Part shown: one piece after another, positions 29,297 through 35,727 of the stretch
How the letters are laid out: each line of letters begins with the position of its first letter
How positions within the stretch are numbered: the first letter of the stretch is position 1
DNA from: Nocardioides stalactiti
GTDB taxonomy: Bacteria; Actinomycetota; Actinomycetes; Propionibacteriales; Nocardioidaceae
DNA: 64,000 nt
Reading direction: 5' to 3'
Assembly: GCF_014180715.1 (NCBI RefSeq)
Contig: NZ_JACEFC010000002.1
Span: 18,793-82,792, forward strand
Made by a program: the position numbers and the translations under genes
The notes under the pieces: generated by a model
The model's input: only the letters and a program-made list of their open reading frames with translations
What the model was told of the DNA's origin: nothing
Databases searched by the model: none

Positions 29297-29950
29297 GTGC
29301 TCGACCGGTTCAAGGACTTCTGGCAGGGCGTCGTCCTCATGCCCTTCGTCAAGCTGTTCATCAAGCTCGGGATCAGTCCCGACACGGTGACGTTCGTCGG
29401 CACGCTCGGCGTGGTCGTCGGAGCGCTGGCGTTCTTCCCACGCGGGGAGCTGCTGGGCGGCGTCCTCTTCATCACCGCGTTCGTCTTCAGCGACCTCATC
29501 GACGGCAAGATGGCGCGGATCCTGGAGCGCAAGTCGCGATTCGGCGCGTTCTGGGACTCCACCCTCGACCGGATCGGGGACGGCGCGATCTTCGGCGGCC
29601 TGGCGCTCTACTTCGCCGGCCCCGGGGACGACTACGTCTACCTCTGCGTCTCGCTGTGGTGCCTGGTCATGGGGTCCGTCACGTCGTACGCCCGGGCGCG
29701 GGCCGAGTCGCTCGGCATGGACGCCAAGGGCGGCCTGGCCGAGCGCGCCGACCGGCTGGTCGCGATCCTCGTGATGACCGGTCTCGGCGACCTGCTCGAC
29801 CTCCCGATCCTGATGGAGGTCACGCTCTGGACACTGGCGCTGGCCAGCACCTACACGGTGATCTTCCGGGTACGGAAGGTCTACCTCCAGGCGATCGTCC
29901 TGGACGCCCCGGGGACGACCGAGGCCGATGCGGGGGACAAGCCCGCATAG
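29297..29950 (+). CDS. pgsA: CDP-alcohol phosphatidyltransferase (phosphatidylinositol-phosphate synthase candidate)
   Basis: 217 aa with about six membrane helices. The catalytic motif reads DLIDGKMAR then [10 protein letters not shown], the complete D-x2-D-G-x2-A-R...G-x3-D-x3-D set. Position after thrS/HIT and sequence shape match mycobacterial PgsA1, which makes phosphatidylinositol phosphate from CDP-diacylglycerol and inositol phosphate. The GTG at 29297 follows TACCGT (29284-29289) by 7 nt; an ATG at 29258 would add 13 residues. The acyltransferase and pimA genes that follow it in mycobacteria are absent here. Confidence 0.87.
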
Positions 29951-29966
29951 ACCTAGAATCGTGCCC

Positions 29967-30860
29967 ATGAGCGAGCAGCACGAACTGGGCACCACGAAGG
30001 TCAAGCGCGGCATGGCCGAGATGCTCAAGGGCGGCGTGATCATGGACGTGGTCAACGCCGAGCAGGCCAAGATCGCCGAGGACGCCGGTGCCGTCGCCGT
30101 GATGGCGCTGGAGCGCGTTCCCGCCGACATCCGCGCCCAGGGCGGCGTCTCGCGGATGAGCGACCCGGACATGATCGACGGCATCATCGAGGCCGTCTCG
30201 ATCCCGGTGATGGCCAAGGCGCGCATCGGCCACTTCGCCGAGGCGCAGGTCCTGCAGAGCCTCGGTGTCGACTACATCGACGAGTCCGAGGTCCTCACCC
30301 CGGCCGACTACGCGAACCACATCGACAAGTGGAGCTTCACGGTTCCCTTCGTCTGCGGCGCGACCAACCTGGGTGAGGCGCTGCGGCGGATCACCGAGGG
30401 TGCGGCGATGATCCGCTCCAAGGGCGAGGCCGGCACCGGTGACGTCTCCAACGCGGTCACCCACATGCGGACCATCCGCGGCGAGCTCCGTCGCCTCGGC
30501 TCGCTGGCCGACGACGAGCTCTTCGTCGCGGCCAAGGAGCTGCAGGCGCCGTACGACCTCGTCGTCGAGGTCGCCCGCACCGGCAAGCTGCCCGTGGTCC
30601 TCTTCACCGCCGGCGGCATCGCGACGCCCGCCGACGCGGCGATGATGATGCAGCTCGGCGCCGAGGGCGTCTTCGTGGGCTCGGGCATCTTCAAGTCCGG
30701 CAACCCTGCACAGCGCGCCGAGGCGATCGTCAAGGCGACGACGTTCTTCGACGACCCCGACGTGGTCGCCAAGGTCTCCCGCGGTCTCGGCGAGGCCATG
30801 GTCGGCATCAACGTCGAGGACATCCCTCAGCCGCACCGGCTCGCCGAGCGCGGCTGGTAG
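29967..30860 (+). CDS. pdxS: Pyridoxal 5'-phosphate synthase subunit PdxS
   Basis: 297 aa, the (beta/alpha)8 synthase that makes PLP from ribose 5-phosphate, glyceraldehyde 3-phosphate and ammonia. D27, K84 (AKARIGHF) and K152 (RSKGEAGTG) match the B. subtilis residues D24, K81 and K149. The ATG at 29967 follows TAGAAT (29954-29959) by 7 nt. Its ammonia-supplying partner pdxT is 4.3 kb away at 35131. Confidence 0.97.
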
Positions 30861-30873
30861 TCCCCGGGGCGAC

Positions 30874-31653
30874 CTAGCGCCGGAGCTCCGGGCAGGCGAG
30901 CTCGGCGCGGTCGTCCGCGTCGAGCGCGTCGTAGTCGCCGACCAGCTCGAGGACCGAGCCGTCGACCGGGTCGAGGTAGACGCGGAAGTCGTAGGGGTCC
31001 TGCGCCCACCAGAGCTGGGGCTCACCTCCGTCGGACACGGTGTACTCACCGGACGGCGGGCCCATCAGCGCGACGATCTCGTCGCGGGACTGGTCGGGTG
31101 AGAGCAGGCACCACGCATCGACCCAACGGGCCGCCTCATCGTCGCCCGCCCGGCTCTCGGTGGAGAACACCCGCCAGCGAGCGCGGTGATAGACCATGCG
31201 CACGGTGACGTCGGCGGTGACGTCGGCGGTGACGTCGGGGTCGGCGGACGCCCTGAGACGGACAGCGAGCAGCGCGTCCTCCTCGGTCTGCTGGGTCACC
31301 TCGAGGTCGACGACATCGCTCGCGAAGCCAGGGTCCTCCCACAGCAGCGCCTCGAACCCCGCGCACGGGTCGCCCAGCTCGGCCCGGTCCACCAGGATCG
31401 CCTGGTAGCGCAGGTCGATGGTGAGCTCGGGCGCCTGGAGCGCGCATGCCGCCTCGGCGTCCTGAGCGGCCAGCGCGGCGAGCCAGGCACGATAGGCCGC
31501 CTCCGGTCCGTCCGGGACCTCCGGGCTGAGGGTCCCGACGACGTCGCGGCGCACCTCGCCCCGACTGGGCTCGGGATCGTCCCCGCAGGCGCTCAGGGTT
31601 GCGAGAAGGCTGCCGATCACCAACGTGGTGAGTCCTGCGCGCACGACCCGCAA
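30874..31653 (-). CDS. Hypothetical lipoprotein
   Basis: 259 aa, not recognised beyond being a lipoprotein with lipobox LSAC. The N-terminus LRVVRAGLTTLVIGSLLATL is the signal. The TTG at 31653 is preferred because AGGAGG lies 6 nt upstream; the frame extends to 31716 without a ribosome site. The first half looks like an NTF2-type fold (AAYRAWLAALAAQDAEAAC), common in actinobacterial lipoproteins. A 12-bp tandem repeat encodes TADVTADVT. Transcribed divergently from the SipW operon. Confidence 0.72.
   Translation of the reverse strand: MRVVRAGLTTLVIGSLLATLSACGDDPEPSRGEVRRDVVGTLSPEVPDGPEAAYRAWLAALAAQDAEAACALQAPELTIDLRYQAILVDRAELGDPCAGFEALLWEDPGFASDVVDLEVTQQTEEDALLAVRLRASADPDVTADVTADVTVRMVYHRARWRVFSTESRAGDDEAARWVDAWCLLSPDQSRDEIVALMGPPSGEYTVSDGGEPQLWWAQDPYDFRVYLDPVDGSVLELVGDYDALDADDRAELACPELRR
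31205..31240. repeat. 12-bp tandem repeat inside lipoprotein gene
   Basis: GTGACGTCGGCG is repeated three times (the last copy degenerate), adding in-frame TADV units. Confidence 0.75.
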
Positions 31654-31716
31654 GGCATTCCTCCTCAGAGTTGGATCCGCCGTTCCGAAGATTAAAGCGG
31701 GACGGTGGAGGACCAT

Positions 31717-31736
31717 CGTCCCAAGGGACGTCTTGG
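31717..31736. promoter_or_regulatory. Overlapping palindromes ahead of the SipW operon
   Basis: CGTCCC-AA-GGGACG (31717-31730) and CCAA...TTGG (31721-31736) lie 26 nt before the first gene of the operon and could be an operator or 5' hairpin. Confidence 0.4.
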
Positions 31737-31761
31737 GAGGGACGCCCCGGGAGGGAACATC

Positions 31762-32313
31762 ATGAACAAGTCAACGAAGGGCGCCCTGGCTGCCGGAGCA
31801 GCCGCGGTCCTCTTGGTCGGCGGTGCCGGGACGCTCGCGTTCTGGGCCGACGACGAGACCGTGCCCGGCGGCACCATCGACGCCGGCCACCTCGACCTGA
31901 CCACCGATGGCACCAACACCGGGTGCGGTGTCTGGGAGCTCGACTCGGGAGAGGCGGCGCCCGTCACCTGGAACGACGGCGACCCGCTCGTGCCCGGGGA
32001 CGTTCTCGCCATGGAGTGCGCGTTCACGATCGACGCGCAGGGCAACCACCTGCGCGCCACCGTGTCGGCGTCCGCCCCCAACCTCACCGGCAGTCTCGCA
32101 GCGGGGCTCGACATCGATGCGGTCGGCCTGACCGTCAACAACGTCGCGGCCACGGAGTTCACCGAGGCCAACGACGGCCAGGCGCTCGGCGTGACCGTGA
32201 CGGTGACCTTCACCGACCCCGGGAGCGTCGACAACACCTACAACGACCCGGCCACGGACGTCTCGGCAGTGCTCGACGACATCACCGTGACCGCCACCCA
32301 GGTCCACAGCTAG
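31762..32313 (+). CDS. Alternate-type signal peptide exported protein (SipW-dependent type)
   Basis: 183 aa. The N-terminus KSTKGALAAGAAAVLLVGG leads to GTLAFWADDETVPGG, the alternate signal peptide style processed by SipW-like signal peptidases and seen in TasA/camelysin relatives. The mature part is beta-rich, Asp/Thr-rich and carries two Cys (GCGVW and MECAF). The ATG at 31762 has GAGGGA upstream. It is the first gene of a five-gene operon, 4 nt before its signal peptidase. Likely a cell-surface or fibre-forming subunit, by analogy. Confidence 0.8.
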   Translation: MNKSTKGALAAGAAAVLLVGGAGTLAFWADDETVPGGTIDAGHLDLTTDGTNTGCGVWELDSGEAAPVTWNDGDPLVPGDVLAMECAFTIDAQGNHLRATVSASAPNLTGSLAAGLDIDAVGLTVNNVAATEFTEANDGQALGVTVTVTFTDPGSVDNTYNDPATDVSAVLDDITVTATQVHS

Positions 32314-32317
32314 CGTC

Positions 32318-32881
32318 ATGCGCGCGGCGCTCGGGTTCGGGCGCCTCGTGCTGGCCTGGTGCGTGATCCTCGGCGCCGGCAGCGTGCTGCTGGCGGCCGT
32401 GGTCGTGCCGCGGCTCGTGGGGGCGACGACGTACGACGTACAGACCGGGTCCATGCGGCCCGGCCTGCCTCCCGGCACGCTCGTCGTGGTGCGTCCGGTC
32501 GAGCCCGAGCAGATCGGGATCGGGACGGTGGTCACCTACCAGCTCGTGTCGGGGGAACCGACGGTCGTCACCCACCGGGTGGTCGAGGTCGGCGTCAACC
32601 ACGTGACCGGCGACCGGCTGTTCCGGACCCAGGGCGACGCCAACGACGCGGTCGACCCGGGGCTCGTCCGACCGGTCCAGGTGCGGGGCGAGGTCTGGTA
32701 CGCGGTGCCGTACGTCGGACGGCTGAACGACCTGTTCGCCGGTCGGCCAGGCCTTCCGCTGCTCGCCGTGGTCGCCGGGCTGCTGGGCTACGCGGCCTGG
32801 ATGTTCGGGGGAGCAGCGCGCGAGCGGCGCACGCGCCGCGCGCCCGTCACCGCGGAGGAAGGGGAGCTGGTCGGGTCATGA
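32318..32881 (+). CDS. SipW-type signal peptidase I (first copy)
   Basis: 187 aa. An N-terminal membrane helix (about 8-35) precedes the catalytic TGSMRPGLPPGTLVVV with S45. VVTHRVVEV places H86 where bacterial SPases have Lys, which defines the ER/SipW-type Ser-His subgroup. QGDANDAVDP and a C-terminal helix (about 142-165) follow. It probably cuts the alternate signal peptides of the exported proteins on either side. Its stop overlaps the next start (ATGA). Confidence 0.92.
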   Translation: MRAALGFGRLVLAWCVILGAGSVLLAAVVVPRLVGATTYDVQTGSMRPGLPPGTLVVVRPVEPEQIGIGTVVTYQLVSGEPTVVTHRVVEVGVNHVTGDRLFRTQGDANDAVDPGLVRPVQVRGEVWYAVPYVGRLNDLFAGRPGLPLLAVVAGLLGYAAWMFGGAARERRTRRAPVTAEEGELVGS

Positions 32882-33510
32882 AGGTCCGTTGGTTGGTGCT
32901 CGCAGCAGTCCTGGCACCGGTCGCGTTCGCGACCGCGGCCGGTCCTGCGCGCGCCGCCGACGACCCGATCGCGCTCAGCGCCGACGGCGTGACCTGGGGC
33001 CATGCCCTCTCCTCCCCGCTGTTCACCCGCGACCACGTCTGGGTGCCGGGTGACGTCCAGACCCGCTCGTTCTACGTCCGCAACGACGGCCCGACAGGCG
33101 CCCGGCTCACCGTCGCCCTCCAGGCCGGGGACAGCGACCGCCTCCTCTCCGACCGCGACCTGGCGCTGTCGGCGCGGGCAGCGACCGGTCCGTGGACCCG
33201 GGTCCGCAACGGCGGTGACGTCGCGCCGCTCGTGCGCGACGCCCTCGAGCAGGGCGAGTCGGTCCGGGTCGACCTGCGGGCCTCGTTCCGCTGGCGGTCG
33301 ACGAACGAGTCGATGGTCGACCAGGTGCCGCTCCAGGTCGTGGTGGTGCTGCGTCAGGACGGCCACCTCACCGACGACGAGACCGACGTGACCCTGCCCG
33401 GTGTGGGCAGCACCGTGCCGTGGTGGCTGCTCACCGTCGCGGTCTGCTGCCTGCTCGGCGGCGTCACGATCGTGCTCATCTCCCGGCACCGGGAGGAGCG
33501 CCATGAGTAG
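32878..33510 (+). CDS. Cell-surface protein with C-terminal membrane anchor
   Basis: 210 aa, family not recognised. A signal peptide (cleavage near PARAADDP), an extracellular beta-sandwich-like domain (TRSFYVRNDGPTGARLTVAL, then VDQVPLQVVVVLRQDG), and a final helix (WWLLTVAVCCLLGG) with basic tail HREERHE. There is no LPXTG, so it is a plain membrane anchor. Flanked by signal peptidase and substrate genes with overlaps (4 nt before, 8 nt after), it may tether or assemble the exported subunits; that is inference. Confidence 0.72.
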   Translation: MKVRWLVLAAVLAPVAFATAAGPARAADDPIALSADGVTWGHALSSPLFTRDHVWVPGDVQTRSFYVRNDGPTGARLTVALQAGDSDRLLSDRDLALSARAATGPWTRVRNGGDVAPLVRDALEQGESVRVDLRASFRWRSTNESMVDQVPLQVVVVLRQDGHLTDDETDVTLPGVGSTVPWWLLTVAVCCLLGGVTIVLISRHREERHE

Positions 33511-34108
33511 GCACGTCGCGGCCCGTCGTACCGGTCGGATCAGGGCGGTCCTCTGCCTCGCGCTGCTGGCAGGCCTCGGGGCCACGACCAGCCTCGCCTA
33601 CTGGACCGACGACGTGGCGATCTCGGGATCGACCTTCACCGCGGCGACGCTGGACCTCGAGGTCGACAACGCCGACCCGTTCGCAGGAGCGACCGTGCTG
33701 TCGATGACCGACATGGTCCCGGGAGCGACCTCGGCGCAGGTGCTCACGATCAAGAACGCCGGCACCGCACCGCTGAAGTACACCCTGGTCGGCGGGCTGA
33801 CCGGCGGTGGGGCTTCGGCCTACAACACCGCGGCCGCGCTCCGGCTCACCGTCGTCCTCAACGGCACCAAGTCCGGGTCCGGCAACACCAGCACGTGCAC
33901 CGGTGGCACCGTCCTCTACGGACCGACCGCGCTGACCAGCACGACGACCACCTCGATCCTCGCCAAGCGCCCGGCATCCCCGCTCGCGACCACGGCCACG
34001 GAGTCCCTGTGCTTCCAGGTCACCTTCGACTCCGCCGCCCCGTCCTCGCTCCAGGGCGCCTCCGTCAACGCGGTGTTCACCGCGACCGGCACCTCGGACA
34101 CCTCGTGA
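33503..34108 (+). CDS. Second alternate-signal exported protein (TasA/camelysin-like)
   Basis: 201 aa. A basic start (MSRHVAARRTGRIR), one hydrophobic stretch (AVLCLALLAGLGA) and then TTSLAYWTDDVAISGSTF, the W-x-D-D border shared with the first exported protein. The mature domain is beta-sandwich-like (AGATVLSMTDMVPG, AQVLTIKNAG) and Thr/Ser-rich with one CxG and one CFQ cysteine. The ATG at 33503 follows GGGAGGAG. Its stop overlaps the fusion peptidase start (GTGA). Confidence 0.78.
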   Translation: MSRHVAARRTGRIRAVLCLALLAGLGATTSLAYWTDDVAISGSTFTAATLDLEVDNADPFAGATVLSMTDMVPGATSAQVLTIKNAGTAPLKYTLVGGLTGGGASAYNTAAALRLTVVLNGTKSGSGNTSTCTGGTVLYGPTALTSTTTTSILAKRPASPLATTATESLCFQVTFDSAAPSSLQGASVNAVFTATGTSDTS

Positions 34109-35106
34109 GCAGGCTGCGCAGCATCGCCGGTCTCGCCCGCGACCTCCTGCTCTCGGCCGGCGCGGCGCTCGGGCTGCTCGTCCTCGTCGCGATGGTCGTG
34201 GGACTCGCCGTCGGAGTGCGGCCCGTGGTCATCACCTCCGGGTCGATGGAGCCGTCGATCGGGACCGGCGCGCTCGTCCTGTCCCGGACGGTGCCCGCCG
34301 GCGACGTCGACGTCGGCGACGTGGTCACCGTCCGTTCGCCGACCGGCTCCCGGGTCACCCACCGCGTGGTCGACGTCGACCGCGACGGCGGGCTCGTCGT
34401 GCTGCGGCTCAAGGGCGACGCCAACGCGGGCGCGGACCCGATGGGCTATCCCGCGAGCGAGGTCGGCGAGGCCGTGGTCCACGTGCCCTACGTCGGATAC
34501 GCGTTGATGGCGGTCCGGACACCCGTCGGGCTGGTGGTGCTCGGCGCGCTCGTCATGCTGCTCGTGCTCGTGGCCGTGCGGGGGAGCGCCGGTCGTCGGG
34601 AGCCGAAGCGGGGCAGGCACGCCGGCGGAACGCCCAGGGGCCGGTCTTCTGGGCACTCTTCTGGGCACTCTTCTGGACACCGCGCAGCGCACGGTGCGCG
34701 GCGCCGTGCGCGTGGTCGTCGTACGGCGGTCGCGGCAGCGACAGCCGCGGTCGTGGCTGCGACGCCGGGCGTCGCCGACGCGGCGCCGTGGACCGACGAC
34801 GTCGCGGTGAGCGGGACGTCGTTCTCCGCCTACACCCTCCCCGCGCCGACGCTCAGCTGCGGAGGGCTCGGCGTGCTGTCGGTGACCTTCAACTGGACCG
34901 CTGTCGCGGGTGCGACCGGCTACGAGCTGACGGCCGGCGGGACGACGTACCCCGTCCAGGCGACGACCAGCAGGACGATCGTCGCCGCGATCACCGGTGG
35001 GACCGCCACGGTCCGCGCGGTGCGGGACTTCGGTTCGACGACCTGGACGTCCGTCGCCTCCAACCAGCGCACCTACACGGTTGCGGTGGTCAGTCTCTGC
35101 TCCTGA
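34105..35106 (+). CDS. SipW-type signal peptidase fused to a substrate-like C-terminal domain
   Basis: 333 aa. Residues 1-160 are a full SipW-type signal peptidase: S47 in TSGSMEPSIGTG, H86 in RVTHRVVDV, and helices at about 15-38 and 138-158. A basic linker with three SGHS-type repeats (about 170-205) follows. Then a new hydrophobic segment (TAVAAATAAVVAATPGVADA) ends at AAPWTDDVAVSGTSF, matching the W-T-D-D border of the exported neighbour, and about 90 beta-rich residues resembling a fibronectin-like domain. No in-frame ATG or GTG lies in the linker region, so this is a real fusion rather than two genes. It may process itself. Confidence 0.85.
   Translation: MSRLRSIAGLARDLLLSAGAALGLLVLVAMVVGLAVGVRPVVITSGSMEPSIGTGALVLSRTVPAGDVDVGDVVTVRSPTGSRVTHRVVDVDRDGGLVVLRLKGDANAGADPMGYPASEVGEAVVHVPYVGYALMAVRTPVGLVVLGALVMLLVLVAVRGSAGRREPKRGRHAGGTPRGRSSGHSSGHSSGHRAAHGARRRARGRRTAVAAATAAVVAATPGVADAAPWTDDVAVSGTSFSAYTLPAPTLSCGGLGVLSVTFNWTAVAGATGYELTAGGTTYPVQATTSRTIVAAITGGTATVRAVRDFGSTTWTSVASNQRTYTVAVVSLCS
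34645..34680 (+). repeat. 12-bp tandem repeat in the fusion peptidase linker
   Basis: Three copies of TCTTCTGGGCAC (the last with one change) encode the SSGHSSGHSSGH linker. Confidence 0.85.
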
Positions 35107-35130
35107 GGACGCGACGACTAACCTCCTCCC

Positions 35131-35727
35131 GTGCCTCGTCCCGTGCCTCGTCCCGTGCCGGTGATCGGTGTCTTCGCGCTCCAGGGCGACGTCCGCGAGC
35201 ACCTCGCGACGCTCACGGAGCTCGGTGTGGAAGCGATCCCGGTCCGGCGCCCGGTCGAGCTGGAGCGCTGCGACGGCCTGGTGCTGCCGGGCGGCGAGTC
35301 CACCACCATGGCCAAGCTGGCCCGCACCTTCGAGCTGCTCGAGCCGCTGCGGGAGCGGGTGCGCGCGGGCATGCCGACCTTCGGCACCTGCGCCGGCATG
35401 ATCCTGCTCGCCGACCGGATCCTCGACGGGGCGGTCGGCCAGGAGACCATCGGCGGGCTCGACGTGACCGTGCGGCGCAACGCGTTCGGCCGGCAGGTCG
35501 ACTCCTTCGAGGCGGACCTCGACGTGCGCGGTCTCGACGCACCCGTCCACGCCGTGTTCATCCGCGCGCCGTGGGTGGAGGAGGTCGGTGCCGACGTCGA
35601 GGTGCTCGCCGAGGCCGAGGGGCATCCGGTCGCCGTACGGCAGGGGCACCTGATGGCCACGTCGTTCCACCCCGAGGTCGCGGACGACGGTCGCATCCAC
35701 CGGCTCTTCCTGGACCTGGTGGGCTAG
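35131..35727 (+). CDS. pdxT: Pyridoxal 5'-phosphate synthase glutaminase PdxT
   Basis: 198 aa, class I-type glutaminase that feeds ammonia to PdxS. The triad is C87 (FGTCAGM), H180 and E182 (SFHPEVA), and LPGGESTTM is present. The GTG at 35131 follows TAACCT (35119-35124) by 6 nt. The first codons are a 12-bp tandem repeat holding three in-frame GTGs (35131, 35143, 35155), with a fourth at 35161; the later ones would still leave an intact enzyme. Confidence 0.95.

What the first reader, a model, noticed from the sequence alone, without database searches (positions are those of the whole stretch)
34105..35106. Signal peptidase fused to a copy of its substrates' N-terminal region
Residues 1-160 form a complete SipW-type signal peptidase (S47, H86). 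After a basic SGHS-repeat linker comes a second hydrophobic stretch ending AAPWTDDVAVSGTSF. The same W-x-D-D border occurs in the exported neighbours: AFWADDETVPGGTID (31762 gene) and AYWTDDVAISGSTF (33503 gene). Seen: the motif match and an uninterrupted frame with no internal ATG or GTG start in the linker. Inference: the enzyme may release its own C-terminal domain, making a protease that is also a subunit.
Basis: partly seen in the sequence, partly recalled or inferred. Interest (0 to 1): 0.7.

Follow-up and report, generated by a model that had tools for sequence, protein, structure and literature searches.

The report
Signal peptidase carrying its own filament-starter
In Nocardioides-type bacteria, an enzyme of the kind that trims exported proteins is joined in one chain to a tail that copies an N-terminal stretch of its neighbour, a protein predicted to build surface filaments; the tail is likely cut free and would then start such filaments, which would put cutter and starter in a single gene.

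Summary
Window 34105-35106 encodes 333 aa: a SipW-type signal peptidase with S47 and H86, a basic linker, a second signal-peptide-like stretch, AAPWTDDVAVSGTSF, and a predicted fibronectin-III domain. It is no sequencing error: 119 of the 120 listed homologues carry the tail, and all 11 loci of this fused clade follow a TasA/camelysin-type gene, 8 with overlapping stop and start codons. The copy of the neighbour's N-terminus runs about 18 residues without gaps, past the cleavage site, over the stretch that in Bacillus TasA is the donor strand joining subunits. The tail has a predicted complete domain of its own, as has Bacillus TapA, which starts TasA filaments by lending its strand. In a related genome (L026) a similar tail is a separate, predicted secreted protein at the same site. 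A usable cleavage site is kept in 118 of 120 members, its register shifting when proline stands at the usual +1. My reading: a SipW joined to a TapA-like filament starter. Architecture, conservation and pairing are shown; cleavage, strand donation and nucleation are inferred. Self-release is plausible but untested; another SipW gene in the cassette could also cut.

The parts
34105..34584 (+). SipW/SEC11-type signal peptidase part (residues 1-160): TM1, outer catalytic domain with S47, H86, D105/D111, TM2
   Evidence: TIGR02228 86.3 bits; A1 profile against SEC11A 7p2p E 2.4e-12; catalytic columns kept
34585..34719 (+). Basic linker (residues 161-205) with SGHS repeat; predicted cytoplasmic
   Evidence: Net charge of residues 160-205 is +12 here and positive in 115 of 120 rows; length 6-66 aa
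34720..34782 (+). Second hydrophobic stretch (residues 206-226), signal-peptide-like, ending A-D-A; predicted cut after A226
   Evidence: Hydropathy like camelysin signal peptides and below TM1/TM2; cleavage-site counts
34783..34839 (+). Copy of the neighbour's N-terminal strand (residues 227-245, APWTDDVAVSGTSFSAYTL); predicted donor strand
   Evidence: Ungapped column match to camelysin residues 32-50; profile hit at residues 229-245, 27.0 bits; pLDDT under 50 at 219-232 and 234-236
34840..35103 (+). Predicted complete fibronectin-III domain (fold match 243-327) with near-invariant C252 and C332
33503..34108 (+). TasA/camelysin-type exported protein (201 aa), presumed main filament subunit; its strand W34-L50 is at 33602-33652
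34105..34108 (+). GTGA overlap of the fused gene's start with the camelysin stop
   Evidence: same overlap type in 8 of 11 loci of the fused clade
31762..32313 (+). SipW-dependent exported protein, TIGR04089 type
   Evidence: 130.3 bits, cut-off 60
32318..32881 (+). Second, unfused SipW-type signal peptidase (187 aa)
   Evidence: TIGR02228 63.6 bits, cut-off 51.85
32878..33510 (+). Predicted secreted, perhaps wall-anchored protein (LPGVGST near its C-terminus)
   Evidence: NF058582 24.7 bits, just under its cut-off of 27

Best explanation
The gene joins a SipW-type signal peptidase to a second signal-peptide-like stretch, a copy of the neighbouring TasA/camelysin-family protein's N-terminal strand and a predicted complete fibronectin-III domain; the tail is likely cut free near residue 226/227 by this enzyme or its unfused partner and would then start a TasA-like filament by lending its strand, as TapA does in Bacillus subtilis. 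Steps: (1) shown: one open frame, conserved fusion, conserved neighbour, shared strand, catalytic residues in place. (2) Predicted: the chain crosses the membrane three times, with catalytic domain and tail outside and the basic linker inside. (3) Inferred: cleavage at A-D-A|A-P-W in this protein, and mostly at A|[A/F]-W-T-D in relatives without proline there. (4) Inferred: the freed, or briefly tethered, strand W-T-D-x-V-x-V-x-G-x-x-F fills the groove of the first camelysin subunit; since the fibronectin-III domain looks complete it should not accept a strand and would sit only at the filament's start, next to the membrane enzyme that matures the subunits. (5) Inferred: making starter and peptidase as one chain, with overlapping codons to the subunit gene, would fix their ratio and place.
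Confidence: 0.5

Rival explanations
1. The shared border is only a recognition motif for the peptidase: the enzyme releases a fibronectin-III adhesin or sensor domain, and the strand has no role in filaments.
For: Enzyme and substrates would share a border if one peptidase cuts both; in the LamG class the fused border resembles its own upstream partner's instead of the WTDD type. Positions nearest the cut carry more of the pairing signal than the distal ones (n=11: p 0.001 against 0.03).
Against: The match runs to about +17, further than signal-peptidase contacts are expected to reach (recalled). Hydrophobic spacing W-V-V-F/L is kept. In L023 a WTDEAPVETG + FN3-like module, which the fused-family profile matches (E 1.9e-13), sits at the end of a camelysin-type protein with no signal peptide before it; a single case.
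Confidence: 0.3
2. The second hydrophobic stretch is not cut: it is a third membrane anchor, and the peptidase stays attached to a filament base or surface sensor through its own tail.
For: P228 stands at the +1 of the common register in 47 of 120 members, including this one. TapA is reported to colocalise with the membrane (PMC10151520, passages).
Against: The stretch has the hydropathy of camelysin signal peptides (median 1.62 against 1.76), below TM1 2.48 and TM2 2.16. P228 members almost always offer the alternative site (45 of 47). L026 carries a similar tail behind an ordinary N-terminal signal peptide.
Confidence: 0.2
3. Two genes joined by a sequencing or assembly error.
For: The linker holds a 12-base repeat, and the split state exists in other loci.
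Against: The same architecture appears in 119 of 120 listed homologues from several sources, and in 11 loci of different genomes.
Confidence: 0.01

Closest known systems
Bacillus subtilis tapA-sipW-tasA operon (TapA, SipW, TasA)
   Same: SipW-type peptidase, TasA/camelysin-type subunit, and a third protein with signal peptide, TasA-like N-terminal strand and a complete beta-sandwich; tight gene overlap. TapA and TasA facts from passages of PMC10151520 and PMC9674648.
   Different: In Bacillus the starter is a separate protein with an Ig V-set fold; here peptidase and starter-like domain are one chain and the domain is predicted fibronectin-III. No sequence match to a TapA family found.
Archaeal thread Saci_0406 with putative cap Saci_0405
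   Same: Minor subunit with a donor strand but no acceptor site beside the main subunit (PMC9715654, passages).
   Different: No SipW-type peptidase fused is mentioned in the passages seen; Saci_0405 is not predicted to be Sec-exported.
SipW-LamG fusions in relatives (L013, L031)
   Same: SipW-type peptidase joined to a signal-peptide-like stretch, a border resembling the upstream substrate's, and a further domain.
   Different: LamG-like domain (my reading of the sequence), another border motif (FTGHTRNSG), no camelysin-profile hit upstream, and a separate clade (100/99), though a common origin is not rejected (AU p 0.22).
Unfused SipW-type signal peptidases of the same cassettes
   Same: Same peptidase family.
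   Different: Mostly tails of 13-51 residues with no border; L012, L019 and L033 have longer tails, also without one.

Membership tests
Archaeal/ER/SipW-type signal peptidase I (TIGR02228) | Score over curated cut-off and Ser-His catalytic residues | tested here: met
   86.3 bits against 51.85; S47, H86, D105, D111 kept; SEC11A match E 2.4e-12
Bacillus SipW equivalog (NF046067) | Score over curated cut-off of 190 bits | tested here: not met
   64.5 bits: SipW-type, not the Bacillus orthologue model
SipW-dependent signal peptide (TIGR04088) | Score over 19 bits in the tail | tested here: not met
   No hit at E up to 1 in this protein; 1 of 120 members at E 0.06. The camelysin profile does hit it
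TasA/camelysin family (33503 gene) | PF12389 over gathering score | tested here: met
   28.4 bits against 22.5, residues 11-91
TasA/camelysin family (33503 gene) | TasA fibre fold with free N-terminal donor strand | tested here: inconclusive
Fibronectin type III domain (tail) | FN3 fold | tested here: met
TapA | Sequence match to a TapA family | tested here: not met
   No TapA-named family among the hits of this protein in NCBIfam or Pfam
TapA-like filament starter (works like) | Strand copy of the main subunit in front of a complete beta-sandwich, beside sipW and subunit genes | tested here: met
   Strand; predicted fold; neighbourhood
TapA-like filament starter (works like) | Donates its strand and nucleates filaments | not testable with these tools
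   Needs complex modelling or biochemistry

The most novel reading that the evidence does not exclude
A self-maturing filament initiator: a membrane protease whose own tail is both its substrate and the first donor strand of the fibre it builds, so that making the enzyme makes the nucleation site. The same solution may have arisen a second time with LamG domains.
Probability: 0.4. Interest if true: 0.85.

Novelty: new variant of a known kind. Interest (0 to 1): 0.68.

Why it matters
In the papers I saw, TasA-type donor-strand filaments are worked out in Bacillus and archaea, and how such fibres are started and tied to the cell is still being settled. A natural fusion of maturation peptidase and starter-like domain in Actinobacteria, with a relative in which a similar starter is a separate gene, ties the two roles together genetically and gives a small, testable system. 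Seven paper searches that paired SipW, TasA, camelysin or signal-peptidase terms with actinobacteria, Nocardioides, fibronectin or fusion wording, or that sought the family names, listed no paper whose title or abstract start describes it (one search listed 15 of 277).

Tried and rejected
Artefact: rejected by the conserved architecture. Internal restart making a separate tail: no start codon in the linker; the GTG at codon 217 would leave only a truncated signal peptide. Partner-specific co-evolution of the strands: seen, but not separable from kinship. Two independent fusions (FN3 class and LamG class): separate clades, but one origin not rejected. The first tree had two fused proteins, cut repeats L003_2643 and L020_1913, mislabelled unfused; one search replaces it. 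TapA, TasA and other folds absent from the VIA list of the fused model say nothing, because FN3 fills that list. A search for more camelysin+FN3 proteins like L023 found one protein, 100% identical to the query over the part searched. Promoter and terminator scan: nothing found. Distribution is sampled thinly.

Full report

THE FUSION IS REAL. Of 175 homologues 120 were listed, and 119 of these keep the tail; P0120 (184 aa) ends after TM2 and was left out of alignment A1. In genomes, fused copies of this type occur in the window's own, in Nocardioides immobilis (L004), and in 9 of 48 other genomes drawn from the same order (G003, G004, G009, G010, G013, G021, G035, G043, G044). I saw none in the 19 loci fetched from 47 genomes outside the order; one of these, L048, has a long trailing frame that I judged out of frame by eye and did not follow. 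One listed homologue, P0108, is labelled Mycobacterium by its source, so the order may not be the limit. Five weaker matches in other genomes had no locus fetched and were not examined. The 11 fused peptidases form one clade (100/99).

THE SHARED STRAND. Columns A227-T244 of the fused family line up without gaps with A32-T49 of the camelysins: A-x-W-T-D-x-V-x-[VI]-[ST]-G-[TS]-T-[FL]-T-A-x-T. The strand profile gives a hit in 70 of 120 fused proteins, over 10 bits in 62, in 0 of 1,200 shuffles and 2 of 120 reversed sequences. The whole-camelysin profile hits the window's fused frame (E 1.2e-5; 3.1e-5), but only 1 of the 11 fused frames at E 1e-3 in the larger set. In TasA the stretch 28-38 is the donor strand, with F29, I32 and F39 in contact with the next subunits (PMC9674648, passages). 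Partner-specific matching exists across 11 diverse loci (p 0.007 ungapped, 0.001 gapped) but fades when kinship is removed (p 0.22). Adding the two LamG loci gives p 5e-5 overall and 0.003 within classes (ungapped).

CLEAVAGE. The second hydrophobic stretch resembles camelysin signal peptides in hydropathy (medians 1.62 and 1.76 over 120 and 117 rows), not the anchors TM1 (2.48, 116 rows) and TM2 (2.16, 120 rows). A site with small residues at -3/-1 and no proline at +1 is present in 118 of 120; shuffled segments give a mean of 64 and a maximum of 85 in 500 runs. Where residue 228 is proline (47 of 120, this protein included) the site one residue earlier fits in 45 of 47, against 15 of 73 otherwise; at 60% clustering 16 of 16 against 3 of 29, at 55% 8 of 9 against 3 of 20. 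That pattern is what selection for a cuttable site would leave; it is not proof of cutting. That proline at +1 hinders signal peptidase is recalled.

SEPARATE COUNTERPARTS. In L026 (G022, a one-contig genome) the order is a substrate resembling the 31762 protein (my reading), unfused SipW, camelysin, then, overlapping the camelysin stop by GTGA, a 156-aa gene with its own signal peptide, AAWNDEVTVAAGT and a further domain, and then pdxT; there is no peptidase in that gene. The A1 profile hits it at E 1.7e-8 (search size set to 1,000), over profile positions 187-257 of 316: the signal stretch, the strand and the start of the domain; that the rest is also fibronectin-III is not shown. The window and L004 have pdxT next too (pdxT is my reading). 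So the tail is equivalent to an exported protein in its own right. Ten further loci have SipW followed by a separate protein with signal peptide, a border of the aromatic kind and, by my reading, Ig-like domains (no domain search was run): L002 (own genome), L012, L014, L025, L027, L029, L041, L043, L055, L056, out of 51 other peptidase frames (58 rows less 7 repeats of fused genes; recounted; one of the 51, in L010, is a cut repeat). L023 carries a WTDEAPVETG + FN3-like module at the end of a camelysin-type protein, with no signal peptide in front; the fused-family profile matches it (E 1.9e-13, best stretch profile 188-303). The one protein found identical to it over the part searched is named from Nocardioides mangrovi.

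HOW IT LIKELY WORKS. TapA of B. subtilis has a TasA-like N-terminal strand in front of a complete Ig fold, cannot accept a strand itself, and starts filaments; tapA overlaps sipW (PMC10151520, passages). The tail here has the same plan with another fold. I therefore read the protein as SipW joined to a TapA-like starter for filaments of the 33503 protein: cut at A226|A227 (inferred), strand handed to the first subunit (inferred). The proposal is that it works like TapA; it is not shown to be a TapA homologue. Whether the enzyme cuts itself, another copy, or is cut by the unfused SipW at 32318-32881 is open. An unfused SipW lies near the fused gene in 9 of the 11 loci.

NOVELTY. Nine paper searches were run; seven bear on the fusion or on TasA/SipW systems outside the usual hosts, and none listed a paper whose title or abstract start describes such a fusion. 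Four papers were opened, by passages only. I rate it a new variant of a known kind.

Mended on recount: rows (58, not 57), block pLDDT of the end domain (76-97), the reach of the L026 match, the hits of the whole-camelysin profile, the P0108 label.

Noticed in passing
L013:1270-2865 and L031:1321-2898: SipW-type peptidases joined to a signal-peptide-like stretch and a LamG-like domain (my reading), each behind a small substrate gene whose border (FTGQTRNSG, FTGTTNNTG) resembles the fused border: a second class of peptidase-substrate fusion.
   Followed up: partly
L023:1979-2755: A camelysin-type protein with a WTDEAPVETG + FN3-like module at its C-terminus and no signal peptide before the module; only one such protein found.
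   Followed up: partly
L002 (own genome, G000:C225): A separate three-gene set: camelysin-like gene, unfused SipW, then a protein with signal peptide, ATFTATTQN border and repeated Ig-like stretches (my reading).
   Followed up: partly
window 29928-35727: The five-gene cassette lies between a pdxS-like gene (29928-30860) and a pdxT-like gene (35131-35727), with one minus-strand gene between; pdxT follows the cassette in L004 and L026 too (names are my reading).
   Followed up: partly
window 34645-34680: 12-base tandem repeat (two exact copies of TCTTCTGGGCAC and one variant) encoding SGHS in the linker, its columns nearly empty in relatives; perhaps a recent slippage expansion.
   Followed up: no
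window 32878-33510: Gene between the two SipW-type peptidases codes for a predicted secreted protein with an LPGVGST end; it may anchor cassette products to the wall.
   Followed up: no
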